From the NCBI GenBank assembly GCA_033439265.1, contig JAVTVX010000016.1, forward strand, positions 563,001-627,000: 64,000 bases of DNA. The letters run 5' to 3'. The position numbers and the translations under genes are program-made. Source of the DNA: Dillenia suffruticosa (lineage: Eukaryota > Streptophyta > Magnoliopsida > Dilleniales > Dilleniaceae). Position 1 is the first letter of the stretch. Each line of letters opens with the position of its first letter. The notes under the pieces are model-generated. The model saw nothing but the letters and a program-made list of their open reading frames with translations, ran no database searches and was not told the origin of the DNA. This document shows positions 33,681-60,510 of this stretch, one piece after another.

Positions 33681-33688
<8 letters not shown>

Positions 33689-35315: not shown

Positions 35316-35498
35316 TCACAAGCGCGAGAGGTTGGAGTTGATGGGAAAATAGGAAACCACGATTGGAGCCTTGGATGACTTCTCGTTGGTCACAGGACTC
35401 CGTGAGGGGGACACTTTGTCGATGGAGCTTCCTTTATCATCAGAAACCCACAAAGAAGAAGCAAAGAAGCAGCCGAAAATGGATCTTACAATAGTCAT
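35316..35498 (-). CDS. short conserved-tail peptide, type 1, block A
   Basis: 60 residues: MTIVRSIFGCFFASSLWVSD, a Ser/Lys-rich middle, and SKAPIVVSYFPINSNLSRL at the end. The start is the ATG at 35498; the frame is open three codons further up but has no ATG there. A TATA box lies about 110 bases upstream. The twin in block B differs by one in-frame codon indel and several substitutions, yet its last 13 residues are identical. That pattern argues for a translated gene under selection at the C-terminus. The N-terminus is hydrophobic with one Cys and is not a convincing signal peptide. The final SRL equals a plant peroxisomal PTS1 tripeptide. The family is not recognised, and no function is claimed. 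Confidence 0.75.
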   Translation of the reverse strand: MTIVRSIFGCFFASSLWVSDDKGSSIDKVSPSRSPVTNEKSSKAPIVVSYFPINSNLSRL

Positions 35499-35603
35499 AG
35501 TATTCAAGAATCTAACACTTTCTTCTTGCTTTGAGCTTAGCTAAGAATGATGAGTATATGCAAACGGGTTTATTGAATTGTGATGAAAATCGAGTGGTAG
35601 GAG

Positions 35604-35619
35604 CTCTCTATATATAGAT
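35604..35619 (-). promoter_or_regulatory. TATA box of the type 1 peptide gene, block A
   Basis: On the minus strand, CTATATATAGAGAG about 110 bases before the ATG at 35498. The block B gene has the equivalent at about 56137-56149. Confidence 0.65.
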
Positions 35620-36982
35620 ATGGTGACATGAGACAACATGAGGTCCAATTTACTTGGGGAGCAAGGTTGACTAGGAATGCAATATCTTATTTAGTTGTGT
35701 ACTTTGAACTTTCTGCTTTGAGTAATGACCAAGTTAACTAAGAAAGGCATGCTCTCTTGCCTTCTCTGAGAGTTTGCGGTACAAGTAATATCTGTCGTGA
35801 AAATCTATTTCCTTCTTAATCATGGACTTCAAAGTGGGTCATCCCTAAGCAAGTATTACTAGTCTACGTCTTATTCCACGTGTCGTGTTTTTGTGTTTTT
35901 GTATGATACGATAATTTATTTATGAGATAGTAACCATTGAATTTCCATCAAAACCTCATCAATTTGATTCAAAGTTGGAGACCCCTTCCCATGATCCTAC
36001 ATCCAAATGTATGACTCAAACTACCTAAATGCTAATGCTTAGTACAAACTGAAGTGGCCTAGACAAAAATCGATGATATAAAGTGTATATTTATAACATA
36101 AATGGATCTCTAATCTACTTACAAAAAACCAATGAATCAAAACATGTAATCCATGAGAGACGATGCGACCAACAACTCCTAGATGGACCATTACAACTAT
36201 AGGCGTAATAAGTGATCGATTGGATTAAGGATAAAAAATAAAAAATAAGGAGATTGCATAGAATATAGAAAGGGTAGAAAGTTTACTTTTTTGGATAACG
36301 AAAATAGTCTGGTCATTACTGTTGTTGATTAAAGGGTTTGAAAGAGTCGACTCTTAAATATAGTAATCGAACCAGATTAATCAAATAACCAAAATACCAA
36401 TCAATAAATACTAAAAAGAAATCATGGAATTTTTTTTCCCAAAACAAGTTGCATAGAGAATTGATCTCAAGTCTTTTAACTAATTTATTGAACATAGAAC
36501 ATATCGGTCCCATCATACTCTTCTCCCATCACTTTATGCATTGACAAGTCCACTTGCTTCTTAAAAAAATAAATATTCATGTTGTAGAAACTTATTAATC
36601 TCTAAAACTTTAAAGTGATTACCAAAACTTTATTGGTTGAACGGTTGAATAATGATATCTTTTAAATAAAATTTTAGATTTGAATTTTGTATATAATAAA
36701 AATAGAAGAGATTTGTTCTTAAAAATCTAATTCAATTCGAGCCAAATTTAATCGAATTGTGATTACCGGATTTTGTGGTTTATATAAAAAAATAAAAAAC
36801 CTTTAAAGTGACTATTGTCTAAGCTCTAAAAGAACTTTAATCGGTGACTATATAGAAAGTAATATGTACATATTTTATCAAATTTTTAATTTCAGCTTAC
36901 AAACGTTCATAATCTCAAGATATACGAAGTATTAAACTTTTACAACTACAGGACAATTCAATCTTTATCCTTGTGCTTTCCC

Positions 36983-37308
36983 TAGAGATGGGACCGGTCC
37001 GCTTTGGGCCGGTTCTGATATGCTTTCGAGGCCTTCAAGGGCCGGGCCGGGCCGGTTCCCAAAAAATTTGCTCGGAACCAGCCCGGCCTGGTGAATTGGC
37101 CAACTGAACCGGACTGTGCTGGGCCGGTCTAGTTGGATAGCTTTTCAAAGTGAAAATTTTCAAAAAATAAATAAAATTGGCCATGGAAGTCGCCGGTTCC
37201 ATGCTGGTCCGGTTCCGGGTTAATGTTGCCCTGGGTGGATTTCTGATCCGGGTTACAATAGGGCAGTTGGCCAATTTCCGGGCGGGAACCGGCCCAGTAC
37301 GATCTCTA
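36983..37308. mobile_element. hAT MITE with GGCCGG-rich interior, block A
   Basis: 326 bp with inverted ends (TAGAGATGGGACCGG at the left, ATCTCTA at the right) and a perfect 8-bp target duplication, GCTTTCCC, at 36975-36982 and 37309-37316. An 8-bp duplication and TAG ends are typical of hAT. The interior is built from GGGCCGG and GGAACCGG words. No transposase is encoded. The same insertion sits at the matching site in blocks B and C. Confidence 0.85.
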
Positions 37309-37496
37309 GCTTTCCCAATATTGTATGGGAAGGAATGAGTTAAACTCTCCATTTTTTTTGCACCCCAAACATTGGACAGTTATTCAACTACATATTTGAT
37401 TCCCCATCAAATTAATTAGAGGAAGAGCAGACTTGCATGTGAAAGAAGCTTTCTGTCAAGGTAAAATTGACTGTTCTGTTCTTATGAATTGAGATC

Positions 37497-40400
37497 TGTT
37501 GGATTTAATCGCGCATGCGGAAGCGAGAATTAAATAGATCGGAATTTTTGGGATAAATACCTCGATAGGGCAGTCTCCAAAATCCACCGTGTCGTGATGT
37601 CCCTCGAACGGATCGCTCGGTCGGATGATGATCACGCAATCGAACCACCACCTCAAATCCACGACGCCTCAAGTCTCGTGTCCGGTGAATCGTCTGACGA
37701 TGGGAGATTTTTCTACGCGAAAATCTCCATCCCTCTCTCTATTTTCTCTCTCTAGAGAATATGTTGTGCAAAACCCTAGCCTCCATGGTTTCCACCCATG
37801 GCTGCTATGCACTCACAAGGAAGGAATCATACTTTCTCAATTGAATCAAAAGAATAATTGCAATTAGGGTTAAGTTTTGGGAGTTACCAAATATGCATGG
37901 TTAGTGTTGGTAAGTAATAATAGGAGTTACCCCATTATCTCATTCTTACCAAAATGCCCCACAATGGGCATAAATAACCTACATCTCCCACTTGCACATT
38001 AGGGCATTTCACTTCCGTCAGTCACAAGATCGCAACTCATGCGATCTCTCACATCACCCTACTGGATTTTCATACTGGATTGGGCGTCGTGCGACCGGCG
38101 AGTACACCTGCAAGCAAAGACTCTCGATACACCTGTTAGGATGATCGAGGAGTCACTGTTAGTATAAAAATAACTCGCTATACCCCAAACTCAATGCATT
38201 TACATCCATCGAGCCACTTTCCTCATCGAAAGTGATCCCCAATCAATTTGCTCGACTATGTATTCATTATTATGTTTGAATCCCAACATGGATTAACACA
38301 ATAGGTCGACCTATGAATACATGACAATGATGTAATGTCTATTGGCCTTCCTTTTCCCAAACTCGAATCTATCGGTCTCAATTCAGCTGCTTTCCTAGAC
38401 CTGCCCCTTAGACCTCAATTTATCTTCCGGGCCATAGGTAAACAGACTAAAGTAGCAACACTGAACCAAAACTTCTAGAGACAGTCGAAAGTAATAAGGG
38501 CATAAGAGATCCCACCCAATGGATCTCAGGTCTCATACAGTGGGAACGGGGATCATGATCAAACTATTGTCTCAAATAATAGCTCCCACTATCCCATGGT
38601 CATCTCATCACACGTGGTATGAAACACGTGCCACAGTGTTATTCCCCCATCTCTCAAAGGGCATATGTCAGATTTCTATAACACTGTACAGGTACGGAAC
38701 TCAGTCTACACATAAGACTTTACCCAGAGATCTCAGAGAGAGCAACTCAGAGACAATATCACAAATCGCAGATGATATCTGAGATCTCAAATCTGGCTAC
38801 TTACAGGCAACATGGATGTGGGTATTTCCATGTCGGTCATATCGCATATGACCTCATCCTGAACACATATCAGGGCGACTTATGTTCTAGTAGGGCTACT
38901 CTCAAAGCCTCTTACGACTAGAATCCGTCTCATCTCCGCTCACTCAGAGTCGGAGGTGGTCACTCGTGTGAGAGAGTCGACCATGCCTGCCTGACACATC
39001 TTTTATCACAAAATCACAATATATGACAACAAATAGTGCATGAAGTAAATATGTGACCCAATAGTGCATGCATGTCATATATTAAAATAAGCATCTAAAA
39101 CAGTATATAAGAAGAAATGTTAAAGTACACTAAACCCAATGATTCCTTATCTCACAAAGAAATCTCTCACAACGGGTTTTCTGAAAAAGATCAGCTCTCA
39201 TGCTGAGGTGTACTTAGATGTCACAATACCCTTCTCGGTAATTTCTCTCACAAAGTGGTCTTCGGTATCAATGTGTTTGGCTTTGCTATTACACTTAGGG
39301 TCTCATTTGATGACAGTGTCGGTCTGATTATTACAATAATCATCACTGACCTCCCACTATCTGTCACAATCCCTAAGTCTTCCAAAAGATTTCTGAAGCC
39401 AACCATTCTCATGAACTGCAATTGAGCACACTACAAGCTCAGTCTCTATCGTAAATACAGATATACAAGTTCTCTTCTTACTGCTCTAAGAAAATAAAAC
39501 CTTTTGCGTTTATTCAGATCACTACTCCCAGTCAGTATCTAAATCCCAACAAAAAATGCAAATCACCTCATCCGTAACACATGGAGAGGTCCGCAGTTCA
39601 AATGAGATATTTCAGAATCCTTTTTCACCGCTCTACAGTGATCCCTTCTAGGATTCTATTAATACCTACTCACCAGATCGACTGCTTAAATAAACGTCTG
39701 GTCATGTATGCCTCATCGCATACATTAAATTGTATATATCACACGTGTATACCACATCGCATACACTAGAAATGTATTTTGCACTGGAATAAGGGATTCT
39801 GCTCATCTCCCTTATTTCTTTATAAATTCTAGGGCATGTGTTAAGATTTAGGTCTTTTTATCTTTAGCGATAAGAGTATCTTTTAGGTTGTGTTCGTTCT
39901 TCTCGAAATACTTAAGAATCTACCTGATGTAAAACTCTTGTTAGAGAGTCAACACCATTCTCAAGCGATCCCTATGGATCCAAAATCTGAGAATGAACTT
40001 AAAACCTCACAACCATGTTACAATGGTCATTGGATACTCTCTGTTGTTCCCAGCCAACAGTATGTCACCTACATATGAGAACATCCTCATAAAGGAGTCA
40101 TCGGGACGTATCAGATATATGCAATGATCCTACTCGATCATTACAAAACCATAAGATATCACCTTCTCGTGAAATCTCAAGCACCGCTGTCTAGATGATG
40201 GCTTAAGGTCATATGTTGATTTCGAAAATCAATAGACCTTATACACCTGATCTACTAGAACGAACCCAGAGGGATGCTCCATGTATATCGCCTCATCTAT
40301 ACTTTCAATACGAAAGCGGTATTTACCTTCTTGTGATGTGACTCCTGATCCATGTTCGTGACAATCGCTGAAAGATAAACGGATCGAGATAAATTGGACT

Positions 40401-43400
40401 ATGATTCCTCGATAGTCCACCCCTCAGTCTAAGTGTAACCCTTGGTTACTAGACGGGTTCTTTATCTCTTCATCAATCCGTTGACCTTTATCTTGACTTT
40501 GAGAACCTACTTGTTCCCAATAGTCATTCCGCCCTCAAGCTAATCAACTAGGTCCCAAACCCCGTTGATTCTCATCAATTCCTTCTCTTCATTTATGGCC
40601 TTCAATAAATGGCATTTTGCATCCTCTCGAGAGCCTCTCGGACCGTTTTAGATTTCTCATCATCCTCTAGAGTCGCAACGAGGGTCTCACCCTCAATCGA
40701 AAAAACAACGTTTAAATACGCATTCTCGACACTCTTAGGAGGAGAGAAAAATCTTTACCTTTTGATGGATCGCTCCCACTGGGATCAAAATCCATAGTGG
40801 ATTTTTGTATCCCGCCGCTGGGCTCCTTGAACCATTAGGCTCATCCATCGCATAAAAGGTAAGGTCCAAATCGATTTCACCTCTTTTAGGGAAATCATTC
40901 TCAAGAAATATAGTATTACGAGACTCAATCTCGATTATAGTGCCGTTCGTGTTCGCCTAGGAACACATATTTTCTCGCGGGTCTAACTCACCGTGTGAAT
41001 GCGAGAAATCGTGGCACAACCCCATAATCTCAAGTGGCTAAGGTCAGGCTGCCTCCCTGTCCAAAGCTCAAATGGGGAAACTGACTAATAGTCAGTAGTC
41101 TCGTAAAACTTTTCTCGAAACAGAGCCCCATGTGTAGTTTAGACGAATACTTACGTTCTTGCTCGGTTCTGAGAGTCTCTACTCTCAAATCTAGCTGATT
41201 CTCAATCTCGCTTATGAACCTCCTAAAGCAGTCTGAGCCTCAGACTTATGCGAGATCAAATAGATGAACCAAAACGCACGTAAGCGTCTATAATTATATA
41301 CACAACTCCATTTCTTGCTCTCATGCTCATAAGACCACAATAAAAGGAAGGAAGGCACAATAGTTAACTGCAATGGAGTCCCAGCTCTCATTGCATCGCC
41401 AAATGGTTTTCTCGTCATTTTGCTGGCTAGGCAAAACTCACATACGGGTAACTCGAATCTGGTCAGCGGGTCCAAGAAATCTCTCGCTACTAACCGATTC
41501 ATCATCTCTTACCCCATGTGTCTAAGTCTACTATGTGATTTATTTACATTATCATCTATGCAATCAAATGTAAAGACAATAGTAGAACGACAAAAAACCA
41601 TTAGAAGGAGTAACACCCAGTGCATACATTCCATCATGGATTAAAACCAGAATAATTCAGAAAATTGTCGTATTAAAAACAAGGGAATAATTTCACGCAT
41701 TTCGTAGTCAATTTTAGACAAGGTACAAAATTGTAGATCCGTCGAATGCCTACAATATTGAGGACGTCATAGTAAGTGTCGTTTACTCTGACAACGACAA
41801 ATACTCTGTCCTTAACGTAAATCCTCCAAACTTAAGGATTCACTTGACGGATTACGCACTCCTATCTCGAGTTACGTGGTCGGTTGCTCTTGATTTCAAA
41901 GGAGAGAAATCAGCGAGTATTATAGTGAATGAGACAAATCTCAAACCACGTAAAGAAGAAGGATATTAATTTCTACTCGTCACACTCACGAGCGAAATGA
42001 CCAAATCTACCTCAAACGTAGCAATTTCTTTGGTCTAAACAAATTCCTTCGTCTTGCGTTCTTGTACCTCATTGTCGGTTTTCTCGGATGATTTTTATTA
42101 CCTAGATCTCGAGTCTCGTTCGAATGCTTATGCTATTGGCTTAGCGCCGGGGAAGTACTTACTCAACTCCTCTGAATAAGCATGACTCGAGTGTGGCCTA
42201 CTCGCCTCTAGGTGCTCCTCATCGAGCTCACAATATGTACTCACATCAACGAAAGTACGAATACTTTCGTCAAATGTGAGATAGGATTTCACGGTTTCTC
42301 ATGAATCAGGTAAAAACTGGATCACATCCAGTACCTAAATTCCATCCGAAATTTACTCGTCCGTATATATTAATTCGGTGATCATACTCGACATTTACTT
42401 CATTGTATGATTAACCCTTTTCTTCTGCATCCTCACATAGGAGCCGAAGAGAGTAACACTATGCTCTTATGAGATGAGTCGAACCGACATGTTCATAGAA
42501 TATGACTCGAAAAACGAGATTAAGTTATCGTGTATGCCATTATAAGCATTGCCCTAACTTGGCAAATCTTTTATACCATACACGATAAATCTCTTTATCT
42601 CGTATATTCTGAGGCGCGGTGCCCACCCTGGGGCCCATCATATCGTGCCTCAGATTCCCGTTAGATTTTGCCTCTCGAGAATAAATTGAATCTACTGATA
42701 AAATCACGCAGATCATATCATTCAGTTTACTCTCCTTGCAAAAAATTTAATACGACAGTTCTCAATACTTTAAGAGAAATATATTTGTGACTTGAAGATG
42801 CTTATTATCACATTTTTGTATGCCCTACGAATCATCAAGATCAAAATGACTTGAGTACGACCCCAAAGCGAGCGTATGAGTCAACGGACACCATACACCA
42901 CAACTTGGAATCGCATCTTACCATTTGGACTGTGATTCGGCACACAAAAAAACCCACAAAAAAGTCACATTTATGGATGTAGGACCCCAAAAAAATTAAA
43001 AAAATTCAAATTTTAGCGACTTCACGCGCCGCCCGGGGCCCACACGCGCCGCCGCTCACCGGCGGTGCGATCCATGCGCCGCCACGCGCCGGCGGTGAGC
43101 CTTCACGCGCTGCTACGCGCCTCCACGCGCTGGCAGCAGTCTGGCTCACGCGCCAGACGCGCTGCCACGCGCCTGGCGCGGCTCGGCTCACGCGCGCCAG
43201 TCGCGGCGCGCGGCTCACGCGCCCGCGGGTCTGGGCCGGGTCTTCTTCGCCCGACGGGTCCTGCAACGGGTTTTTCGACCCGTTTTCTGAAAAATACAAA
43301 TCCGGCTGTTTTTTCTTGCATTTTTCAACTGGGAAAAATTTGTGGGTATCCTCCAAACATCCTACACTCGATTTTAGGAGGATTCAAACCCAAAAATTCT

Positions 43401-44274
43401 GGAAATCAACCACCCCAGTCGCGGCCTTCCGTGGCCTTTCGAAACTCCCAGTTTCCGGCATCCAAAACACACAATAAAATATATAAAACCGTAGATCTAG
43501 ATGCAATGAACTCATTTATATCATTTTCATGCATCGATCCGCCCTCTAAAGCCATAGATCTAGGGTTTTTATGTCCGTACGGTCGCAAACTTCGACCGGA
43601 CATTTCATGGCCCAAACATGCTCCGAAAATTAAACAAAAAATATATTTGTAATCCTTGGGCCATGGGTATTCCTACGGTGTTCTCGGATTCACGAAACTC
43701 ATCCGTGATCCGGACCCCAAAATTTTAAAATCCCAAAAATAATTCCGAAAATTATTAAATTAAATCCAACGACTGCTCTGATACCAATGTTGGATTTAAT
43801 CGCGCATGCGGAAGCGAGAATTAAATAGATCGGAATTTTTGGGATAAATACCTCGATAGGGCAGTCTCCAAAATCCACCGTGTCGTGATGTCCCTCGAAC
43901 GGATCGCTCGGTCGGATGATGATCACGCAATCGAACCACCACCTCAAATCCACGACGCCTCAAGTCTCGTGTCCGGTGAATCGTCTGACGATGGGAGATT
44001 TTCCTACGCGAAAATCTCCATCCCTCTCTCGTTTTTCTCTCTCTAGAGAATATGTTGTGCAAAACCCTAGCCTCCATGGTTTCCACCCATGGCTGCTATG
44101 CACTCACAAGGAAGGAATCATACTTTCTCAATTGAATCAAAAGAATAATTGCAATTAGGGTTAAGTTTTGGGAGTTACCAAATATGCATGGTTATTGTTG
44201 GTAAGTAATAATGGGAGTTACCCCAGTATCTCATTCTTACCAAAATGCCCCACAATGGGCATAAATAACCTACA
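37497..44274 (-). mobile_element. Copia LTR retrotransposon, broken
   Basis: 6.78 kb, minus-strand orientation. Two 487-bp LTRs (37497-37983 and 43788-44274) begin TG and end CA on the + strand. The 5-bp target duplication is AGATC (37492-37496 and 44275-44279). The primer-binding site, just inside the right LTR at 43775-43786, matches the 3' end of initiator methionine tRNA; a purine-rich tract lies just inside the left LTR. A recognisable integrase zinc-binding part lies near 41.4 kb (CEFCLASKMTRKPF) and a reverse-transcriptase part near 40.25 kb. The coding region is broken many times over and has no long frame. The LTRs differ at about six sites (about 1.2%), so the insertion is young, roughly 0.5 to a few million years depending on rate. 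Confidence 0.92.
43010..43260. repeat. GC-rich repetitive leader of the Copia element
   Basis: About 250 bases next to the right-hand LTR, dense in CACGCGCC, GCCACGCGC and GGCTCACGCGC words, in an otherwise AT-rich window. It lies in the leader or start of gag of the element. Frames across it, rich in Ala and Arg, come from composition. Confidence 0.7.
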
Positions 44275-44438
44275 AGATCAATCGGTAGAACTGACTAAAT
44301 CATTGCACAAGAAGACATATAAATGAAATTTAGTCAATCCCCCGAATGCACATCAGCATGTGATGAATTCACAGCCTTTTTGACATAGTTCTCTTCTAAC
44401 CATTTCCATCGGCCTTTAGTACGGACACTTTCTCGATA

Positions 44439-44624
44439 TCACAAGCGTGAGGGATTCGAATTGATGGGAAAGTGGGAAACTATGATTGGAGCCTTAGATG
44501 ATTTCTCTTTGGGCGCAGACTTGTTGGAGGAGGGGACTTTGGCACTGGAGCTTCTATAATCATCATCAGCAGCCCTGGATGATGAACCAAAGAAGCAGCT
44601 GAACATGGATGACAACATAGACAT
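44439..44624 (-). CDS. short conserved-tail peptide, type 2, block A
   Basis: 61 residues from the ATG at 44624: MSMLSSMFSCFFGSSSRAAD, a charged Ser/Lys middle (SAPKEKSSKAP) and VSHFPINSNPSRL at the end. An upstream in-frame ATG at 44705 would add 27 residues. I did not choose it because that stretch aligns with the untranslated leader of the type 1 genes. A TATA box lies at 44737-44750. Compared with copies C and B2 there is an in-frame one-codon indel (PSSNKS against PSNKS) and a change of Leu to Pro four residues from the end. The SRL terminus is kept. This gene was joined to its upstream neighbours until the Copia insertion, whose right edge is 0.16 kb from the stop. Confidence 0.72.
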   Translation of the reverse strand: MSMLSSMFSCFFGSSSRAADDDYRSSSAKVPSSNKSAPKEKSSKAPIIVSHFPINSNPSRL

Positions 44625-44736
44625 GGTTTTGAGGTTATTACTAGTATTCAAGAATCTAAGATTATCTTGCTTTAGGCTTAGCAAATAAGGGAGGAGTATA
44701 TGCAAATTGGTCTGCGATGAGAATTGTTGTAGAAGC

Positions 44737-44750
44737 TTTTATATATATAA
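44737..44750 (-). promoter_or_regulatory. TATA box of the type 2 peptide gene, block A
   Basis: Minus strand reads TTATATATATAAAAG, about 115 bases before the ATG at 44624. The block B gene keeps it (about 58777-58787); copy C has lost it. Confidence 0.7.
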
Positions 44751-45029
44751 TGCCTCAACTATTGTGGGGTCTGGTTTACTTGGGAACCAAGGTTGGCAAG
44801 CACTTGGGAATCATTCTGGATTCTTCCCGCTTTGACTACCAAGTGTGTTTCACTAAGAAATGCATTTTCTTGGTGCCTTCTTAACAGTTAACATCCTGGA
44901 AACGGAGGTAAAGGAACGTAAAGAAAAAAAATGAGAAAGAAAGGGAAAAGTAGATAAAATTAAAAATAAGTTTAACAACAAAAATATGTGATAGGAAAAA
45001 AAGATAAATCACATTTGATTAAAAGAGAA

Positions 45030-45217
45030 GGGTGTGATCCTACCAGCACTAATGTACCGGACTCATCAGAACTCTACGATTAAGCGTGTTTAGGCGAACG
45101 TAGTATTAGGATGGGTGTTGCATCCCTTATTTTTATCCCAAAGAAAATAGTTTAGTGGTACAAATTTCTCTCCCCAATTTAATGATCACATGTTCAAATC
45201 ATTCAACAAAAAAAAAA
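45030..45217 (+). mobile_element. composite retroposon: 5S rRNA pseudogene joined to a tRNA-type SINE
   Basis: 45030-45128 is clearly 5S rRNA-like: GATCCTACCAGCACTAATG, CATCAGAACTC, GATTAAGCGTG and AGTATTAGGATGGGTG, ending TTGCATCCC. It lacks about 21 bases between two GTG words, which removes much of the internal C box. From about 45149 a tRNA-like unit follows, with AGTTTAGTGGTAC (A-box-like) and ATGTTCAAATC (B-box-like), then a poly(A) tail at 45206-45217. Imperfect direct repeats (AAAAGAGAAGG and AAAAGGAGAGG) flank it. The matching sites in blocks B and C are empty. It is not a working 5S gene. A Cassandra-type TRIM LTR, which also carries 5S sequence, is the main alternative. Confidence 0.75.
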
Positions 45218-46813: not shown

Positions 46814-47137
46814 GCCTTCCCAATATTGTATGGGAAGGAGTCAAAACTCTCCTTTTTTTTTGCTCCCCAAACGTCGGATGGTTACTCAACTGCATATTTG
46901 ATTCCCCATCAAATTAATTAGAGAAAGAGCAGACTAGCATGTGAAAGAAGCTTTCTGTCAAGGTCAAAATGACTGTTATTTTCTTATGAACTGAGAACTG
47001 ACTAAATCATTGCACAAGAAGACATATAAAAGAAATCTAGTTAATCCCCCGAGTGCATATGATGAATTCACAGCCTTTTTGACATAGTTCTCTTCTAACC
47101 ATTTCTATCGGCCTTCAGTACGGACACTTGCTCGAGA

Positions 47138-47320
47138 TCACAGGCGTGAGAGAATCGAATTGATGGGAAAGTGGGAAACTATGATTGGAGCCTCAGATGA
47201 TTTCTCTTTGGGCGCAGATTTGTTGGAGGGCCCTTTGGCACTGGAACTTCTATAATCATCATCAGCAACCCTGGATGATGAACCAAAGAAGCAGCTGAAC
47301 ATGGATGACAACATAGACAT
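47138..47320 (-). CDS. short conserved-tail peptide, type 2, block C, promoter lost
   Basis: 60 residues from the ATG at 47320, opening MSMLSSMFSCFFGSSSRVAD and ending VSHFPINSILSRL; the last 16 residues equal those of the block B type 2 gene. The coding frame is whole. Upstream, the bases between GTTGTGGAAGC and AAGGTTGG are missing compared with blocks A and B, about 52 bases, and with them the TATA box and presumed start site. It may be silent or use another promoter. Confidence 0.65.
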   Translation of the reverse strand: MSMLSSMFSCFFGSSSRVADDDYRSSSAKGPSNKSAPKEKSSEAPIIVSHFPINSILSRL

Positions 47321-48219
47321 GGTTTTGAGGTTGTTACTAGTATTCAAGAATCTAAGATTATCTTGCTTTAGGCTTAGCAAATAAGGGAGAACGAGTATGT
47401 GCAAATTGGTCTAGTGGGTTGTGATGAGAATTGTTGTGGAAGCAAGGTTGGCAAGCACTTGGGAATCATTCTGGATTCTTCCCGCTTTGACCACCAAGTG
47501 CGTTTCACTAAGAAATGCATTTTCTAGGTGCCTTCTTAACAGTGTGTTTAGCAGCCTCTGGAAACGGAGGTAAAGAAAAGTAGGGAAAAAAAAATGAGGA
47601 AGAAAGGGAAAAGTAGGTAAAATTAAAAGTAAGTTTAACAAAAAAAAAAAAGATAAATGTAAGCAAAATATGAAATCACATTGGATTAAAAGAGGAATGG
47701 AAGAGAATATATTAAAAAAATCATAAATTTATTATTTTATCATTTTTAAATTCATACTTTTTTAGAATAGAGGGTATAAAAAAATTTAGTATTTAGAATT
47801 TTAAAAGAAAATTTCTACCCCCACAACTATCGATTTGATGGAATTAAAAAATTATATTTGAAGAGTTTTTACAAAATCCTCCAAAATCTTTTCCATAAAT
47901 AAATTATTTTACCAAACATGGTGAGTTATTTAAAATCCCATCATCCAAATTTAAAAGTTGATGATAAGAGTAATCTTGAATAAGAAATCTTTAAAAATTA
48001 CCACACAAGATTTGAAGTAATTGAATGGGAGGTTGTGTTTTGAGATTCATAAATAAATAAGTAAATAAATTAATTATATGCTTATGTTAATATAGAGTAT
48101 TGGAGATATTTGCCCTTGTTTATCAAATTTGTTGACAAATCCTACTAAAAACTGAGTATGTCATCCAATCCAATTTTAGGTCTAATTTTTGGTATTTTAA
48201 TGCTAAGATAAATCAACAC

Positions 48220-50559: not shown

Positions 50560-50795
50560 TTAGGTTGAGAGTGAGTGACCCAGTCTATCAGAAACAAGAT
50601 TATTCTCCCTTACGGCTTCAATATGCTTTATGTTAGTAGTACTAGTGGAATTATCATCAGTCAGACTGGATACTTGCCCTTCCAAAGATATTGAACTCTC
50701 ATCCAGGTAGTCTCCATTATCATCTGGGTATCAAGACATCAAGGCCTTTTCTTCATGCATGATCCTCGGTTGATTTTCATAGTACATAAAATCAT
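50560..50795 (-). pseudogene. unrecognised relic exon, block B
   Basis: Copy of 29184-29455. The frame reads LDDFMYYENQPRIMHEEKAL, TGA, YPDDNGDYLDESSISLEG, and ends SDRLGHSLST with a TAA. Upstream of LDDF the sequence no longer matches block A, so one of the two has a rearrangement there. Confidence 0.5.
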
Positions 50796-51483
50796 CAAGC
50801 AAGGAATTAAGATTTGAATTTAAAGCAACCGAACATCAAAGCATTGACTCATAAAATTTATCCCTTCATTCGCCAAAGACATACCTCAAAAAATTCATGC
50901 AACTATGCCAAACAAATTCGGACAAAACCAATCAAAAATCAAAACTGAAATTCAAATTAAATATTTGGATAAGGTCCTTAAAAATTTTACTAATTTTTTA
51001 CATTTACCTTCTATAGAAAATTTTTTCTATAACTAGTAAAGTGATAAATTAATAGACTTTTTAACATAATATATATCATTTACCCCATTAGACATGTGGG
51101 AGATAACTCAGGAATTACACACACCAAACAAAAATCCTTTATGTCCTCATGTATCCATCAATGACAATTTTTTCCTTTTCCATTGCCAATGAAAAATCAA
51201 TTATATTATTAAAATCAAAGGCTCATAGCTTGCATCATCCCGTTGTGCATTGCGCTAAGACGAGAAGCCTTAGCTAAAAGTATCTTCTGCACTTCCCTAT
51301 GTATTCAAAGATGAAGCTACGCATTGAGTAAAATTTTATCAGCCTCCAACGTTTAGTCATGGTAGAATTCCTCCCAACCTTGGTACTAACTACGCTGTCT
51401 CAAATTAACCATGAAGTTAGGAAATGAACTATGGCCGCCCTGGTTTGCATCTGCATGAAAGCTTGCTTGTGTATCAAGGCCAT

Positions 51484-54007
51484 CTATCTAGCTTCAACTA
51501 GAAAAGATGGTTCTTTTGAGGATTCTGGCCATAATGGTGAAAGAGCAACTACTTTGCCGATGACGATCAGTGTCGGTGAGACTAGTTCTGCTAAAGAAAT
51601 TTTTTCAGCAAGATCTTGCAGTCTGGAGAAGACCTGCATGAACACAAATCATCAAGTAAATAAATTAAACCACGGTTAATTCAAGCCACGCAAGTCTGTA
51701 AAATGAAATGGCCTAATAGGATGCTCGTGACCCGTTCTGCTTATGAGGAGGTGTTTGCAAGGCAATGCACTGTTAAATACCTTCATGGTTCAGCTAAGAT
51801 ATGGGAGCAAGTGAAAGAGTTGAAAAAATGGCCTAGGAATGAAGTAGTTGCTAGCTGCACCTTTCGGATTAAATTTGAAGAACCAATGAAAATTCTAAAC
51901 CCTTTCAACTCTTTCTTGCTCCACTATAATCTCAGCTAAACTTACCATTCCCATGACATATTTGAATTCACAAATTGCTAGGATTTTGTCCTTTGAATGG
52001 TTAAACATATTAACAATCTTCAACAATGATAAATGCAAATTACGGGTAAAAACAGGGAAACAAGAGTGAAGACCAAGATGTTGCAGACTTACAATGCGCT
52101 GTTGAGGTGTGGTCCCACGGTCAACTGCAGCTGCCGGGGTATCAGCCGGAAGACCATGATGGATCAACTTAGGGGCAAGGGAAGGAAGAGTTGCCAAGCC
52201 CATATAGATTACTAAGCTGCACTTTCGGCTACAAATAGAGGATCTGTTCCTCCTTTCCTTGAATGCCCCGTCAGAAATCTCACACTATTTGCAACACTTC
52301 GATGAGTTAGGGGAATCCCAAGTTCTGCTGCTATCCCAGAAGCAGCAGTGATGCCTGCAAAAAATCAGCATATTAAACTATCTATACCATCTAATGTCCC
52401 TCAATTTCAGAGATTTACTTTGGTCATTTGCTCCGGGGAAAAAAAGGTGAGAGAGAGAGTGATAGAGAGAGAAGCCTTAACACAACATTAAACATAGGAA
52501 AGCTTAGTATGTTGACAACTGGTTCCACACAAATACTAGAAATCATGTTGGCTGATATCAACATACATTTTGTCATGTGCCTATGTACGTGTGAATCTTA
52601 TATGCTTTTCGTTTTCCTCATTTGTAGTCTATGCTAGGGTTTTGATTAGAGAGTGTGCTTCTAGTGGAAGACACTTATGAAAATGAACTTGAAAAGCAAG
52701 TATAAAGCGACAATTTTATCATGTTATTTGGGAAATTGGATTCAACCAACATGCGATAGTCCCTCCTTAAGGGAATTTAGGACATGAATCCGACATCTTA
52801 TGTTGGTGTTTGATTACCATTCTCTTAAGCCATTGAATGATGATGGTTTTGCTGCCTATGTGCCTGATTGACTCAATGACCAACATCATAAATTGAAGCC
52901 TTTATGGTTTTTGTAGGATTACAATAACGAAGTACTAAGTGCCAAATCATAAATTGAAGCCTTCATGGTTTTTGTAGGATTACAACTAACAAAGTACCAA
53001 GTGCCAAATAGGAAAACATAATCCTTAACAATAATCAAAATGCCATGAAACTTGACAAGTCTATTAGTAGTAAAATACCTGGAATCACTGTCACTTGAAT
53101 CCCTTGTTGCTGCAGAAAATCCATCTCTTCTCCACCTCTCCCAAAAACCTACAATTGGACAAGCAAAGATTTTTACTCAAATAACTTGACACAAGTATAA
53201 TAGCACATTCTATTTAACTACAAAATGATCTTCTACTCAATACTACATTTCCTGCACCAGGAACTCACCAGTGGATCCCCTCCTTTCAGCCTCACAACAT
53301 TGGCTCCAGCTTCAGCAAAATTCAACAGCAATTCATGAATTTCCTCTTGCAAAATGAGACAAAATTAGGACTTGACAAACACCCATAATTCAACCCAGAT
53401 TAAATTAATAAAACTAAATAAAATAAAAAAGAAAAAAAAATGTGACCTGAGTTCTACTATGATAACCAGTAGTCTTGCCGACATAGAGAAGCTTAGCATG
53501 ATCACGAACCAAATCCAACACATCATTAGAAACTAATCTATCATACAACAAAAGATCAGCACTTTGAATCACTCTCAAGGCCTTCAAGGTCAAAAGCTCA
53601 GGGTCTCCAGGCCCTGTACCCACTAAAAACACATTCCCAATTCTTCTCCCCCTCTCCCCTCCACAACCAACATTTCTCTCTCTCTTCTCTTTCAACACTT
53701 GCAATAGCTTCTTCAACTCAGGCAATTGCAAAGCAATGTCATTTTCCCTGATTGAACTTGAATCATAAGGAAGAGAGCATGAAGATAAAGACGAAGAAAA
53801 TGTTGGGTCATCTTTGTATAACCAGCTATCTCTCTCGTATCTACCAACTGAATGCTTTTCTGTAAAAGGTGATGAATTTGATGAATTAGGTTTGTTGTTA
53901 AAGTGCAATGAACAAATGGGTTTGCGCAATTTTCTGGATTTAAGGTATTTGTACTGAAATGAATGAGAAACAGAAGAAAGATGAGAAATTTCCTTCACAA
54001 GAGCCAT
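51484..54007 (-). pseudogene. UPM1: uroporphyrinogen-III C-methyltransferase, damaged copy
   Basis: Same five exons as copy A: 54007-53447, about 53346-53269, 53148-53079, 52354 to about 52090, and 51633-51484. Exon 1 is open and nearly identical to copy A. Two defects are seen. Exon 4 lacks 16 bases present in copy A (after CTTTGTAGCCGAAAGTGCAG on the minus strand), which shifts frame and gives an immediate stop after SAA. The intron 1 acceptor reads GCAAGAG where copy A has GCAGGAG, so the AG has moved by a base and would shift the frame if used. The product would lack the GTTPQQR end of the catalytic domain. It is most likely a pseudogene; a truncated transcript is possible. Confidence 0.88.
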
Positions 54008-54774
54008 TGAGAGAGAGAAAGAGGATTGGGGTTGGATTCAGAAGCTGAGTTGTGTATAAATTAGAGGAGAGAGAGAAAGAAGAATTTTACTACTGAAAAC
54101 GATGGAGAGGCTATAGACCACTTGGGATTTAGGAGGGGACGAGATTGTTTTTCCCTTCCCTGGTTACCGCAGCCTTTTGATTTTGTTTGTGAGTTTTTGC
54201 TATCTAGAGCTCAATTCTATCCAACTTAGGGCAAAGATGTTTACGTGTTTCACTTCTACTGCTTGACAGAGAAGTCTCCAAAATTTTGGAATTACAGTAA
54301 AGTATAAAACACCAACGAATGAGCGTGGACTGAATTTGACACTCCAGAGATGTACCAACTCAATTCTCTCTCTCTCTCTCTATCTCTCCCTCTCTCGGTA
54401 TTTAATTAATAATATTTTACTATTTTTGTTTTGCGAATATTTTTAGCTCTTTCATTGCTAAAACATACCAACAAACTCTGTGTCTGGTGGTGGGACGATA
54501 AATTTATTTAATGAAAATTTTAAATTTGAATTTTAAAAATAAAAAATTAAATATTAAAAAAATCAATTTTTAAATTAAATTTCACAATTGTTAAAATAAA
54601 AAAGTCAATTTCTGAATATTAATAGTCAAAATATTACCGAAAGGTAAAAAATAGAAAAAAGGAGTATAACAAAATTATAATTCCATTTCTTTGTATCTAA
54701 ATTATTATTTTATATAATAAATTTTCAGTTAAAAGTATTACAAAGAGTTTATTTATGGGCAAAAGGGACAACGA

Positions 54775-54925
54775 TTGAATCATTATTAAATAAAATAATA
54801 AAAGTTTAACATATGAGTGATAAAGAATTTTTATTCAAATGTATATTTTTGAGATTTAATATTTAAATTTTCATAAATATATATATTTTTATAATTTTTA
54901 TGATCTTTATGTAAAAAAAAATAAA
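54775..54925 (+). mobile_element. SINE-like repeat, block B
   Basis: Copy of the repeat at 34085-34225, with ATAATTTTTATGATCTTTATG near its end. 54010-55510 otherwise holds AT-rich spacer. A minus-strand frame near 55115-55306 resembles one at 34399-34647 only because both lie in the duplicated block. Confidence 0.35.
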
Positions 54926-55515
54926 AGAATTAAAAAAATCATGAAAGTGATATTATTTTAGATTGTTGGTATGAAAAATTACAAATACAATGTTAAGTTT
55001 AGTATTATTTATAGAAAAATCAAACTTCTATTTACAAAACCCTAAATTTTATATAATTTTTTTTTTACTTTACCTAAAAAATATTAAAATTGAAATAAAA
55101 TAAAAAGAGGTTAGTTATGGATACATGAAAATGGAGGTTGATAGAAAACCAAAGCCAAAATAATAATAATTATTATTATTATTATATGCCAAGCTTGTTG
55201 ACATCTCAATGGGATTGTGGTGACAACATGGGCCATGGCAACGATGGAGGTCTCGAACCACCGTTCTCTCAGTGAATAACACATCCCTCATCATTAAGAA
55301 ATCCATTTTTTCTCAGTATGATAAAGTTGACATATTTTGAAGAACTACTCTTACACAAATACAATTATACAAATACTATAGGGCAACAAAAGGTGATAAT
55401 TTGGGACAATCCCACCAACTCACTTTAGCCCATAACAAAAAAAATCACTATCATTTCACAAATATACTCAAATTCTGAACGTAATCATTGGCGTGACGAG
55501 TGTTCCCTCTGACCC

Positions 55516-55610
55516 ATATCCATCAGCTTACAGTATGGGAACTTGTCTGAGAACACAAGCTGGACACTTATTTAAGATCACAAGTGCGAAAGAAATGGAG
55601 ATTTGAAGAT
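55516..55610 (-). pseudogene. relic tail of a short-peptide gene, block B
   Basis: Copy of 34985-35080, with the same loss of the stop and C-terminal codons. The gene it came from was dead before the segmental duplication. Confidence 0.45.
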
Positions 55611-55849
55611 CAACTATTACTTAAAAAGGATATAACAACAGCACGGAGGACTGATAAGGCTACAAATTTGGTCTCCATTATGCAGTACAAGGAAAATTTG
55701 AAGCTCAAATCAAACGAATTCAAGCCCAGCCCCATCACAAAGACGAATATGGTATAAAGCAGCTAAGCATGGGGCAGAACAAGCCCATCATTAACGATCA
55801 TTCTCACTATCCATGTCCATCAGCTTACAGTATGGACACTTGCTCGAGA

Positions 55850-56029
55850 TCACAAGCGCGAGAGGTTGGAGTTGATGGGAAAATAGGAAACTATGATTGG
55901 AGCCTTAGATGACTTCTCGTTGGTCACAGGACTCTGTGAGGACACTTTGTCGATGGAGCTTCCTTTATAATCAGAAACCGACAAACAAGGAGCAAAGAAG
56001 CAGCAGAAAATGGATCTTACAATAGTCAT
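55850..56029 (-). CDS. short conserved-tail peptide, type 1, block B
   Basis: 59 residues: MTIVRSIFCCFFAPCLSVSD, middle SSIDKVSSQSPVTNEKSS, end KAPIIVSYFPINSNLSRL. Compared with the block A gene it is one codon shorter in the middle and has two more Cys near the N-terminus, but the tail is unchanged. ATG at 56029; TATA box at about 56137-56149. The 3' flank keeps GATCTCGAGCAAGTGTCC, which is shared by all type 1 and type 2 genes. Confidence 0.75.
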   Translation of the reverse strand: MTIVRSIFCCFFAPCLSVSDYKGSSIDKVSSQSPVTNEKSSKAPIIVSYFPINSNLSRL

Positions 56030-56439
56030 AGTATTCAAGAATCTAACACTCTCTTTTTGCTTTGAGCTTAGCTAAGAATGATGAGTATCTGCAAACGGGT
56101 TTATTGAATTGTGATGAAAATCGAGTGGCAGGCGCTCTCTATATATTGATATGATGACATGAGACAACATGAGGTCCAATTTACTTGGGGAGCAAGGTTG
56201 ACTAGGAATATAATATCTAATTTAGTTGTGTACTTTGAACTTTCTACTTTTGAGTAATGACCAAGTTAACTTAGGCATGCTCTCCTGCCTCTCCAAGAGT
56301 TTGCGGTACAGGTAATATATGTGAGTTTGATACATAATATATTCTAAAAATCATAAAATTCCTCACGTGTCGTGAGTTTCTCTCTCTTGGAATTTTTGAA
56401 CAATTCATGTTACCATACTCTTATTAAATGGAACCAAAC

Positions 56440-56660
56440 TCCTTTACATTGAGTGATCGGACAAACAACTCCTTTAACCAGAAGTCTCGAGTTCGAACCC
56501 CTAAAAATGACAAAAAAAGATTTAAAAAAACTAATCTCTAAAATAGACCCCGTAGTATTCAAACCGAATTAGTCAGATAAAACTCGAATACCGATTTGTT
56601 TAATTAATTTGGTCAGTATTTAAGAATATAAAAGTATTATTTGCATCATATTATATTGTG
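56440..56660 (+). mobile_element. SINE-like insertion, block B only
   Basis: Head ATTGAGTGATCGGACAAAC, B-box-like GAGTTCGAACCCC near 56490, then an AT-rich body ending near TTTGGTCAGTATT. It lies in the 0.56-kb stretch missing from block A. It is related to the minus-strand copy at 6745-6850. Confidence 0.5.
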
Positions 56661-57741
56661 TAACCTCCTTAATAAATATATTTAAATATGAATTTAATAT
56701 TTATGTGACGATTAAAAAATAAGTCAAATTAGTATTATCTTAAAATTTTTACCATGTCTTTTAATTAACAGGAAACAATAATTTAGACATGTTTAGCATA
56801 AATTGCCAGACTAATTATCACTTCAATTTGATTCTATGTTTAGCATAAATACTATATCTTGAAAACATATGGCTTCAAGGTTGGAGACCCCTTCTCAAGA
56901 TACCACATCCAAATGTATGACTCATACTACCTAAATGCTAATGCTTAGTACAAACTAAAGTGGCCTAAACAAAAATCGATGATATAAAGTGTATATTTTA
57001 TAACATAAATGGATCTCTAATCTACTTACAAAAAAACAATGAATCAAAACATGTAATCCATGAGAGACGATGCGACCATAACTCCTAGATGGAGCATTAC
57101 AACCATAGGCGCGATAAGTGATCGATTGCATTAATGAAAAAAAATAAAAAATAAGGAGGTTGCATAGAATATAGAAAGCGCAGAAAGTTTACTTTTTTGG
57201 GTAATGAAAATAGTCTGGTCATTACTGTTGCTGACTAAAGGGGTTGGGAGAGTTGTTTAGATATATTTCATAATATTTAAATCAGATTAATTAAATAATC
57301 AGAATACTGATCGGTAAATAATCAACCAAGTCTACTTTCTTCTTAAAAAAGTAAATATAGCCTCCAAAACTTTAAAATGACTACTTATGCCTGATTGGTT
57401 AAACGACCGAATACTGATATTTTTTAAATAAAATTTTAAATTTAAGTTTTATATATAACAAAAAAAAAAATATCCATTAAAAATCCAATCCATATCGAAT
57501 AAGATTTTATCGGATATAATGTGATTATCGGATACCGTGATTTATACAAAAAAAAAAACCTTTAAAGTGACTATTGTCAATACTCTTAAAGAACTTTAAT
57601 TGGTGACTATATAGAAAGTAATATGTACATATTTTACCAAATTTTTAATTTCAGCTTATAAACATTCGTGATCTCTAGATAAACGGAGTATTAAACTTTT
57701 ACAACTACAAGACAATTCAATCTTTATTCTTGTGCTTTACC

Positions 57742-58119
57742 TACAGATGGGACCGGTCCGGGGCCTAGGAACCACAGGCTGGCTCCCGAGGCCTTCCAGG
57801 GTCGGGTCAGGTTGGGCCGGTTCCAAAATATTTGTTTGGAATTGGCCCCTGCCCAGTGACCCAGGCCTGCTGAACCGGGCTGTGCTGGGCTGGCCGGTTC
57901 AATGGTTTTTCAAAGTGAAATAATTTTAAAAATTAAAAAAAAGCCATTGGAACCGGATCGGGCCAGTTCCTTGCCGGCCCAGTTCAAAAAAAGGAACCGG
58001 ACAGGCTCAGTTAGTGTTCCAGGTCTGGGTTACTATTGCCCCGGGCCGAAGTCCAGTCCGGCCTATAACGGGGCAGAACCGGGCCGGTTTCCGGGTCAGA
58101 ACGGCCGGTCCCATCTCTA
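57742..58119. mobile_element. hAT MITE, block B
   Basis: Same element as at 36983 and 46419, 378 bp. Ends TACAGATGGGACCGG and ATCTCTA; target duplications GCTTTACC and GCCTTCCC, identical to block C and unlike block A. Several open frames across it arise from its GGCCGG composition. Confidence 0.82.
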
Positions 58120-58470
58120 GCCTTCCCAACATTGTATGGGAAGGAAGGAGTCAAAACTCTCCATTTTTTTTTTTGCTCCCCAAACGTTGGATAGTTATTC
58201 AACTACATATTTGATTCCCCATCAAATTAATTAGAGAAGGAGCAGACTTGAATGTGAAAGAAGCTTTCTGTCAAAGTCAAAATGACTGTTATTTTCTTAT
58301 GAACTGAGATCAATCGGTAGAACTGACTAAATCATTGCACAAGAAGACATATAACAGAAATCTAGTCAATCCCCCGAATGCACATCAGCATATGATGAAT
58401 TCACAACCTTTTTGACACAGTTCTCTTCTAACCATTTCCATCGGCCTTTAGTACGGACACTTGCTCGAGA

Positions 58471-58653
58471 TCACAGGCGTGAGAGAATCGAATTGATGGG
58501 GAAATGGGAAACTATGATCGGAGCCCCAGATGATTTCTCTTTGGGCGCAGACTTGTTGGAGGGCACTTTGGCACCGGAACTTATATAATCATCATCAGCA
58601 ACCCTGGATGATGAACCAAAGAAGGAGCTGAACATGGATGACAGCATAGACAT
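58471..58653 (-). CDS. short conserved-tail peptide, type 2, block B
   Basis: 60 residues from the ATG at 58653: MSMLSSMFSSFFGSSSRVAD, middle DDYISSGAKVPSNKSAPKEK, end GAPIIVSHFPINSILSRL. An upstream in-frame ATG at 58737 is less likely, for the reason given for the block A gene. The TATA box is intact (about 58777-58787) and the 5' flank matches block A closely, so this looks like an expressible copy. The empty Copia site lies just beyond its 3' end near 58311. Confidence 0.75.
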   Translation of the reverse strand: MSMLSSMFSSFFGSSSRVADDDYISSGAKVPSNKSAPKEKSSGAPIIVSHFPINSILSRL

Positions 58654-59624
58654 GGTTTTGAGGTTGTTACTAGGAATCAAGAATCTAAGATTATCTTGCT
58701 TTAGGCTTAGCAAATAAGTGAGAACGAGCACATGCAAATTGGTCTAGTGGGTTGTGATGAGAATTGTTGCAGAAGCTTTTATATATACTGTGCGTCAACT
58801 ATTGTGGGGTCTGGTTTACTTGGGAAGCAAGGTTGGCAAGCACTTGGGAATCATTCTGGATTCTTCCCGCTTTGACCATCAAGTGTGTTTCACTAAGAAA
58901 TGCATCCTCTTGGTGCCTTCTTAATTGTGTTTAGCAGCCTTCTGGAAACGGAGGTAAAGGAAAGTAAAGAAAAAAAATAGAAAGGGAAAAGGTGATAAAA
59001 TTAAAAATAAGTTTAACAATAAAAAATGTGATTAGAAAAAAAAGATAAATGAAAGTAAAATAAGAAATTACATTTGATAAAAAGAGAAAAGGAAGAGAAT
59101 ATATTAAAAAAAAATCACAAATTTATTATTTTATTATTTTTAAGTTCGTTATTTTTAAAATAGAATGTATTAAAAAAATTAGTATTTAAAAATTTTAAAA
59201 GAGAATTCCTTCCCCTCCAAAACTACTGATTTGGTGAAATTAAAAAATTGTATTCAAATGGTTTTTATGAAATCCTCCTAAATCATTTCCTTAAATAAAT
59301 TGTTTTATCTGTTTTACTAAACATAAATTATTTAAAAACCCTTCATCCAAAATTAAAAGTTCACGATAAGACTGATCTTGAATAAGAAATCTTTAAAAAT
59401 TATCGCACAAAATTTGAATTAATTGAATGGGAGGTTGTGTTTTGAGATTCATAAAAAAAAAAGTAAATAAATAACTATATATATTAATATGGAGTAAGAA
59501 GATATTTGCCCTTGTTTATCAAATTTGTTGACAAATCCTACTAAAAAATGAATATTTCATCCAATCCAATTTTAGGTCTAATTTTTGGTATTTTAATACT
59601 AGGATAAATCAACAAAAACATTCC

Positions 59625-59745
59625 TAGGGACACACCAGTGGTTAAGAGCTCTTACTCCAACGTCAAGGGTTGACGTCTCATGTTCAAATCTTTGTGGATA
59701 CGAATAATTCTGTGATTTTCGAGATTCACATTAAAAAAAATTAAA
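59625..59745 (+). mobile_element. tRNA-type SINE, block B
   Basis: ACACACCAGTGGTTAAGAG (A-box-like), GTCTCATGTTCAAATC (B-box-like), then a body with GTGATTTTCGAGATTCAC and an A-rich tail. Partner of 48220-48360. Confidence 0.55.
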
Positions 59746-60047
59746 AAAATCAACATAAACATTCCAGATCCCTGATCTTCAGAGTCCAAGAGGAGAGAGA
59801 AACATACTAAGAGAGATAAAAAAATTTAAAAAACACCAATCTCTATATCAAAAATCAGAAGTTAATTGATTAATGGAAGTACTAAGAAATCATCTCTTCC
59901 TTTATTTTTCACCCTATTGTTGAATATTAACCTCGTATTGTCTTTTGGCCCTCTTCATGTCCCTCAAAAATCATCCATATCACCACTATTAAATTTCGGA
60001 ACGTAGAGTATTTTTCTGTTTGAGACTTATTCACTCACAGCAAGTGC

Positions 60048-60246
60048 TCCCCTGTTTTCAGTGGGAGAAGATGTAAAAGTGATCCCCTGTTTTCATGTTT
60101 ATCAAAGGGAATGCATCCAGAAGTGGCTGCTCGAGAGTCATTCATGTCCTCTCCGTCACTTCAAGATGCCCATTCACCCATTTTTGATTTCCTCTTTTCT
60201 CAAATGCAAATATGAAAGGGAAATAAAATTTCATGAACTAATATAG
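60048..60246 (+). pseudogene. RING-H2 finger remnant
   Basis: After an acceptor-like CCCTGTTTTCAG, a frame reads GEDVKVIPCFHVYQRECIQK, WLLESHSCPLRHFKMP. This is the second half of an ATL-type RING-H2 domain (CxHxYxxxCIxxWLxxxxxCPLx). The last zinc-binding Cys is replaced by Arg, and the first Cys pair and transmembrane exon are absent. Such proteins are membrane-bound E3 ubiquitin ligases, often defence-related. It is most likely a dead fragment. Confidence 0.6.
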
Positions 60247-60291
60247 TGATTCACTATAATCGTACAATATTGTAGAGAACATGATTCTCAT

Positions 60292-60483
60292 TTATAAGCG
60301 AGAAAGATTTGAATTAACCGGGAAATAAGACACCACAATTGGAGGGCTACAAGATTTTGATTTTCCTTTGGACTTGTCACTCTGGGAGGAAGATTTTGCA
60401 ACTGAGGATGGCCCATCATTGCCAACTTGAGATGAACATGGAATCAAGCACCTAAACATGGATGACAACCACCCCACTAGCAT
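60292..60483 (-). CDS. short conserved-tail peptide, diverged sixth copy
   Basis: 63 residues from the ATG at 60483: MLVGWLSSMFRCLIPCSSQV, a long Ser/Lys/Gln middle (SSSQSDKSKGKSKSCSPP) and IVVSYFPVNSNLSRL. The frame extends nine codons further up, but this ATG lines up with the LSSMF motif of the type 2 genes. A TATA-like CATAAATAGC lies about 85-95 bases upstream (about 60566-60577). The middle has no close match to the other five copies, yet the tail differs from type 1 by only Ile to Val. This is the strongest sign in the window of selection on the C-terminus. It lies just outside block B and is older than the duplication. Confidence 0.72.
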   Translation of the reverse strand: MLVGWLSSMFRCLIPCSSQVGNDGPSSVAKSSSQSDKSKGKSKSCSPPIVVSYFPVNSNLSRL

Positions 60484-60510
60484 TGTGTTCCGCCAAAGAC
60501 TGCCCTGCAA

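What the first reader, a model, noticed from the sequence alone, without database searches (positions are those of the whole stretch)
35316..60483. Cluster of six short genes with a fixed C-terminal motif and free-running middles
Five genes in the duplicated blocks and one diverged gene encode 59-63-residue proteins ending I-V-V-S-[YH]-F-P-[IV]-N-S-x-x-S-R-L (one I-I-V-S variant). Seen directly: indels between copies are whole codons, the last dozen residues hardly change while the middle of the 60292 gene is unrelated, and TATA boxes sit at about 85-125 bases. I recognise no named family. The motif does not fit CLE, CEP, PIP, PSY, RALF, IDA, SCOOP or CTNIP/SCREW signatures as I know them. Inference: a small-protein family whose C-terminus is the working part, either as a targeting tail or as a released peptide from a precursor without a signal peptide, as PROPEPs are.
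Basis: partly seen in the sequence, partly recalled or inferred. Interest (0 to 1): 0.9.

Follow-up and report, generated by a model that had tools for sequence, protein, structure and literature searches.

The report
Tiny plant proteins, likely peroxisome tags
A cluster of six tiny genes in what looks like a plant genome encodes small proteins that all end in the same three amino acids that plants use as an address label for peroxisomes, next to an unfamiliar conserved stretch, so they are probably small peroxisome-directed proteins of a family with no name that I could find.

Summary
The six genes are there: intact ORFs of 59-63 codons, all on the minus strand. Their last 17 residues are held at protein level (8 amino-acid-changing against 20 silent changes; middle 57 against 21; Fisher P 7e-5, and 7e-5 to 0.004 over three trees and wider borders). 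Pfam (six proteins), PDB sequences (F only) and prokaryotic/viral contigs gave no relative; no plant database was at hand, so conservation outside this locus is untested. SRL> is listed as an experimentally validated plant peroxisome targeting signal (PTS1) and called canonical. None of 313 other ATG ORFs of 30+ residues in the window ends in SRL. Best reading: tandem copies of a small, mostly disordered PTS1 cargo protein. A near-invariant core PI[IV]VS[YH]FP[IV]NS, two looser residues, then SRL> suggest a docking segment beside an import signal; that function is inferred. A released peptide signal remains a rival, since a PTS1 alone needs no such long fixed tail. Corrections: IIVS is the majority form (4 of 6), and copy C lost its TATA box.

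The parts
35316..35498 (-). gene A, 60 aa, tail APIVVSYFPINSNLSRL-stop
   Evidence: ORF; alignment; TATA at -118
44439..44624 (-). gene B, 61 aa, tail APIIVSHFPINSNPSRL-stop
   Evidence: TATA at -125 to -119
47138..47320 (-). gene C, 60 aa, B/C/E type, tail APIIVSHFPINSILSRL-stop; TATA box missing
   Evidence: about 52 bp of promoter with the TATA box absent compared with B
55850..56029 (-). gene D, 59 aa, closest to A, tail APIIVSYFPINSNLSRL-stop
   Evidence: TATA at -116
58471..58653 (-). gene E, 60 aa, B/C/E type, tail APIIVSHFPINSILSRL-stop; no cysteine
   Evidence: TATA at -134 to -130
60292..60483 (-). gene F, 63 aa, most diverged copy, tail PPIVVSYFPVNSNLSRL-stop
   Evidence: 100-base flanks 25-34% identical to the other five in ungapped comparison, tail DNA 65-73%
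35319..35327 (-). candidate PTS1 codons S-R-L of gene A; the same three codons precede the stop in the other five (44442-44450, 47141-47149, 55853-55861, 58474-58482, 60295-60303)
   Evidence: codons; SRL> as a plant PTS1 in passages
37497..44274 (.). LTR-retrotransposon-like insertion between A and B: 487-bp terminal repeats 98.8% identical, ends TGTTGG...CCTACA, 5-bp target duplication AGATC; not part of the gene family, explains the wide A-B gap
   Evidence: the one inner ORF scanned (41215-41508) has no Pfam match

Best explanation
These are six tandem copies of a small gene whose products are short, mostly disordered, peroxisome-directed (PTS1) proteins. The free C-terminal S-R-L would be read by the receptor PEX5, which carries the protein into the peroxisome. 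The near-invariant segment before it, PI[IV]VS[YH]FP[IV]NS, separated from SRL by two looser residues (NL, NP or IL), would be a docking site for a partner, either a peroxisomal protein that it regulates or a protein that it ferries in. The serine- and lysine-rich middle would be a tolerant spacer. Shown here: the ORFs, the frame, the constraint on the tail and the exact SRL-stop in all six. From papers: SRL> is a working plant PTS1. Recalled: that PEX5 is the receptor. Inferred: that the genes are expressed, that the proteins reach peroxisomes, and that the core binds a partner.
For: 6 of 6 end in SRL-stop, with 4 silent and no amino-acid changes at these three codons on the tree. 0 of 313 other ATG ORFs of 30 or more residues in the window end in SRL and 1 of 313 in [SA][KR][LMI] (these controls are mostly chance ORFs, not known genes). 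SRL> is in the table of experimentally validated plant PTS1 tripeptides (PMC3427985 Table A1, passage) and is called canonical, for example in the uncharacterised protein UP5 (PMC9328179, passages). [quoted passage not shown] The last 14 residues hold 0 acidic residues of 84 positions, against 22 of 279 elsewhere; the same paper calls acidic residues very rare in PTS1 domains. The only non-conservative changes among the last 10 residues are at -5 (N or I) and -4 (L or P), between core and tripeptide. AlphaFold on A with the six-sequence alignment finds no fold (pTM 0.17, mean pLDDT 60.8), with its best block (81) at residues 41-50, the start of the core.
Against: A PTS1 alone does not explain why a further 11-residue stretch is held. 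The N-terminus has a short hydrophobic stretch with cysteine in 5 of 6, which could send the protein elsewhere. No PTS1 predictor could be run. No homologue outside the locus, transcript or localisation was available. The copies share ancestry, so SRL is kept in three lineages (A/D, B/C/E, F), not six independent ones. The closest pair A/D shows no constraint (7.5 N, 1.5 S). PMC3487989 also says that acidic residues can sometimes enhance targeting, so their absence is weak evidence.
Confidence: 0.55

Rival explanations
1. The last ~16 residues are a peptide signal released from a precursor without a classical signal peptide, working like Pep peptides from PROPEPs: damage or infection frees the tail, which binds a cell-surface receptor.
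For: A held tail behind a fast-changing middle fits a precursor. The held stretch is longer than a PTS1 needs. The highest 11-residue mean hydropathy near the N-terminus is 1.1 to 2.15, which I judge weak for a secretory signal; no predictor was run. Each promoter carries one W-box TTGAC[CT] at -172 to -224, a WRKY site often found in defence genes (recalled).
Against: The W-box number is near background (1 per 500 bp against 0.61 in the window; three independent promoters at most). The peptide signatures that I recall do not fit. The exact canonical PTS1 would have to be coincidence. Literature searches with tail strings gave no relevant paper.
Confidence: 0.25
2. The protein is a membrane-tethered regulator: the cysteine-bearing hydrophobic head is lipid-modified and the tail is a docking motif for a cytosolic partner; SRL is coincidence.
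For: The head keeps S-[IM]-F-x-C in 5 of 6, with three cysteines in D and two in F.
Against: The head is only weakly constrained (ratio 0.71), and E has no cysteine.
Confidence: 0.12
3. Decaying or non-coding duplicates with a shared ORF of no function.
For: C lacks its TATA box. A against D has 7.5 N and 1.5 S changes. No transcript evidence was available.
Against: Tail ratio 0.14 (0.12 to 0.25 over the borders and trees tried), third-position variation, coding-phased indels, and an intact frame in F, whose flanks no longer resemble those of the others.
Confidence: 0.05

Closest known systems
Plant PTS1 cargo proteins, e.g. the uncharacterised UP5 (At5g44250, SRL>)
   Same: C-terminal SRL>, a validated and canonical plant PTS1 (passages)
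   Different: These are 59-63 aa, without any Pfam match, with a near-invariant core just before the signal. The passages read name mainly enzymes, kinases, phosphatases and five uncharacterised proteins, whose sizes I did not check
PROPEP/Pep damage peptides
   Same: Works-like comparison only: small precursor, perhaps no signal peptide, variable front and held C-terminus
   Different: The Pep C-terminal signature (recalled, SSGxxGxxN type) is absent from all six tails
SCOOP peptides
   Same: Small, tandemly duplicated, fast-evolving precursors (recalled)
   Different: The S-x-S core of SCOOPs (recalled) is absent from the tail, whose serines are at -12, -6 and -3

Membership tests
Plant PTS1 proteins | ends exactly in an allowed PTS1 tripeptide | tested here: met
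   SRL-stop in 6 of 6; SRL> listed as validated
Plant PTS1 proteins | tripeptide kept by selection | tested here: met
   4 silent and no amino-acid changes at -3 to -1 on the tree; only three lineages, all in this locus
Plant PTS1 proteins | upstream residues compatible, acidic residues rare | tested here: met
   0 acidic of 84 positions in the last 14 residues; a weak criterion
Plant PTS1 proteins | score above threshold in a plant PTS1 predictor | not testable with these tools
   scoring matrix not at hand
Plant PTS1 proteins | signal kept in orthologues of other plants | not testable with these tools
   no plant sequence collection available
Plant PTS1 proteins | location in peroxisomes | not testable with these tools
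   needs microscopy
PROPEP | Pep C-terminal signature (recalled) | tested here: not met
   read against the alignment
PROPEP | no N-terminal signal peptide | tested here: inconclusive
   hydropathy only
SCOOP | S-x-S motif in the C-terminal peptide (recalled) | tested here: not met
   tail columns

The most novel reading that the evidence does not exclude
A family of minimal PTS1 adaptors: ~60-residue disordered proteins made of little more than a partner-docking core and an import signal, which carry proteins lacking their own signal into plant peroxisomes (piggyback import on demand), amplified in tandem.
Probability: 0.12. Interest if true: 0.8.

Novelty: new variant of a known kind. Interest (0 to 1): 0.5.

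Why it matters
If the tail works as a PTS1, this adds very small cargo without a recognised domain to the plant peroxisome proteome, with a conserved core that could serve at once as bait for a partner. If the tail is instead a released peptide, it would be a signalling family with a signature unlike those I know. One localisation experiment would go far to separate the two.

Tried and rejected
Homology searches that found nothing: Pfam for the six proteins at E up to 1, PDB sequences for F alone at E up to 1, IMG/VR with the alignment (21 pattern matches, none confirmed), GTDB contigs with the alignment (5 matches) and with F (223 matches), none confirmed. These collections are not plant genomes, so the misses say little about plants. 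PHROGs, NCBIfam and PADLOC were not searched. No whole genome is held for the window.

Literature, open-access papers only, all 10 searches used: six tail strings (0 papers); six shorter strings (one paper, on influenza in cats, judged irrelevant from the listing); NSxLSRL strings; combinations of PTS1 or peroxisome with small proteins, unknown function, small peptide or phytocytokine (0 papers each); microprotein and short-ORF terms (57 papers at 4 of 6 terms, 15 listed, titles and abstract starts seen, none on small plant PTS1 proteins; one on a yeast peroxisomal matrix protein); PTS1 tripeptide with SRL and plant peroxisomes (14 papers listed, of which I read passages of three, PMC3427985, PMC9328179 and PMC5539789); a last search (one paper, listing only). 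PMC3487989 was reached through a reference list and read in passages. Passages of a review of plant small peptides (PMC10638237) named no matching family. PMC5539789 (passages) concerns an internal SRL in catalases and does not bear on this case. No paper was read whole.

Rejected arguments: W-boxes, because the count is near background. Structure, because the model is of low confidence, so no fold search was run. PTS2: no match to [RK][LVIQ]x5[HQ][LAF] in the six. A longer spliced gene is thought unlikely because the TATA-to-ATG leader is short and alignable between A-E, but no transcript was available. In the frame control (six chosen pairs of 15) antisense frame -1 also gave a low ratio (0.21); its third positions coincide with the sense third positions, and no plus-strand ATG ORF of 50 aa or more overlaps any of the six genes. 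The first tail test left out columns 45-46; one search adds them.

Full report
What is there. Six ATG-to-stop ORFs on the minus strand, A 35316-35498, B 44439-44624, C 47138-47320, D 55850-56029, E 58471-58653 and F 60292-60483, encode 59-63 residues and align over 63 columns with 18 invariant positions, 11 of them in the last 16 residues. tblastn with all six finds no further copy in the window below E 0.05. That the window is from a plant is inference: the stretches scanned include NB-ARC/LRR resistance-gene pieces, a lipoxygenase piece, an O-fucosyltransferase piece and tetrapyrrole methylase pieces (the label UPM1-like is recalled), and no whole genome is held for it.

Array history. Self-comparison shows 30201-37496 repeated at 50966-58311 in pieces of 76-94% identity, with the methylase gene and A/D, and continuing beyond the insertion as 44275-45009 against 58307-59050 (90%), so that A-B corresponds to D-E. 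The insertion, 37497-44274, has 487-bp terminal repeats 98.8% identical and the target duplication AGATC. Without it A and B would start about 2.3 kb apart, against 2.7 kb for B-C and 2.6 kb for D-E. F lies 1.8 kb from E and is the most diverged: its 100-base flanks are 25-34% identical to those of the other five in ungapped comparison, while the tail DNA is 65-73% identical.

Constraint. On the tree ((A,D),((C,E),B),F) columns 47-63 carry 8 amino-acid-changing and 20 silent changes, the middle (19-44) 57 and 21, the head (1-18) 23 and 8 (gapped columns dropped: 2 of 26 in the middle, 2 of 18 in the head, none in the tail). Rate ratios are 0.14, 0.79 and 0.71; Fisher P is 7e-5 for tail against middle and 7e-4 for tail against head. 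Columns 45-46 were outside both regions; with them in the tail the count is 13 N and 21 S, ratio 0.22, P 7e-4. Over the three possible orders of B, C and E the tail ratio is 0.12 to 0.25 by border, and P for tail against middle is 3e-5 to 0.004. Borders were drawn after seeing the alignment, and the counts are parsimony estimates on related sequences, so these P values are guides. A against F has 12 silent changes on 11.5 silent sites (saturated) and 1 amino-acid change on 33.5 sites over the last 15 codons. Other frames of the same 51 bases give 1.0 to 6.9, except antisense frame -1 (0.21), which shares wobble positions. Against constraint: the closest pair A/D has 7.5 N and 1.5 S changes over the gene.

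The missed clue. The last three residues are S-R-L in 6 of 6, directly before the stop. SRL> is in the table of experimentally validated plant PTS1 tripeptides (PMC3427985, Table A1, passage). PMC9328179 (passages) calls it canonical and names UP5 and a phosphatase as bearers. [quoted passage not shown] In the six tails 0 of the 84 last-14 positions are acidic, against 22 of 279 elsewhere. As a chance control, 0 of 313 other ATG ORFs of 30 or more residues in the window end in SRL and 1 of 313 in [SA][KR][LMI]; most of these are chance ORFs. Since the copies share ancestry, this is one coincidence to be explained, kept in three lineages.

Anatomy. By column, positions -16, -15, -13, -12, -10, -9, -7, -6 and -3 to -1 never change; -14 and -8 swap I and V; -11 swaps Y and H; only -5 (N or I) and -4 (L or P) change strongly, and they separate the core PI[IV]VS[YH]FP[IV]NS from SRL. 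This reads as core, two-residue linker and import signal. AlphaFold on A gives no fold (mean pLDDT 60.8, pTM 0.17), with the best block mean (81) at residues 41-50. The N-terminus has a short hydrophobic stretch, with cysteine in 5 of 6; its meaning is open.

Expression signs. A, B, D and E have TATA boxes 116-134 bases before the ATG; F has only a weak one near -91; C has lost the box. One W-box per promoter is near the window background of 0.61 per 500 bp. No transcript data were available.

Mechanism. Most likely (0.55) the proteins are bound by PEX5 through SRL and imported into peroxisomes, with the core docking to a partner. Shown: ORFs, tail constraint, SRL-stop. From papers: SRL> works in plants. 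Inferred: expression, import and docking. The main rival (0.25) is a released peptide signal, because the held part is longer than a PTS1 needs. A lipid-anchored regulator (0.12) and functionless duplicates (0.05) follow.

Novelty. No family matched in Pfam, in PDB sequences (F only) or in the contig collections searched, and the tail strings tried are not in the open papers searched, apart from one short string in an unrelated paper. Plant protein databases may well hold unnamed relatives; this could not be checked. It is filed as a new variant of a known kind (PTS1 cargo), not as a member of a named family.

Noticed in passing
37497-44274: Young LTR-retrotransposon-like insertion between genes A and B: 487-bp repeats 98.8% identical, target duplication AGATC. 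The one inner ORF scanned has no Pfam match.
   Followed up: partly
31219-33220 and 51898-54037: Two copies of a tetrapyrrole methylase gene (UPM1-like, name recalled) within a 94% identical block; the ORFs of the second copy near 52.2 kb appear to run in a different frame from the first (read).
   Followed up: partly
17910-21795: CC-NB-LRR resistance-gene-like sequence: the ORF 18274-20229 matches NB-ARC, the frame seems to change near 18.28 kb and a stop lies at 20230-20232 (read). A further NB-ARC fragment is at 24169-24867.
   Followed up: partly
13223-13735: Lipoxygenase piece (Pfam PF00305) on the minus strand.
   Followed up: no
47138-47580: Gene C keeps an intact ORF but lacks about 52 bp of core promoter with the TATA box.
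   Followed up: partly
58471-58740 and 60292-60570: E and F have an upstream ATG 80 bases before the start codon; the other four leaders have none within 120 bases.
   Followed up: no
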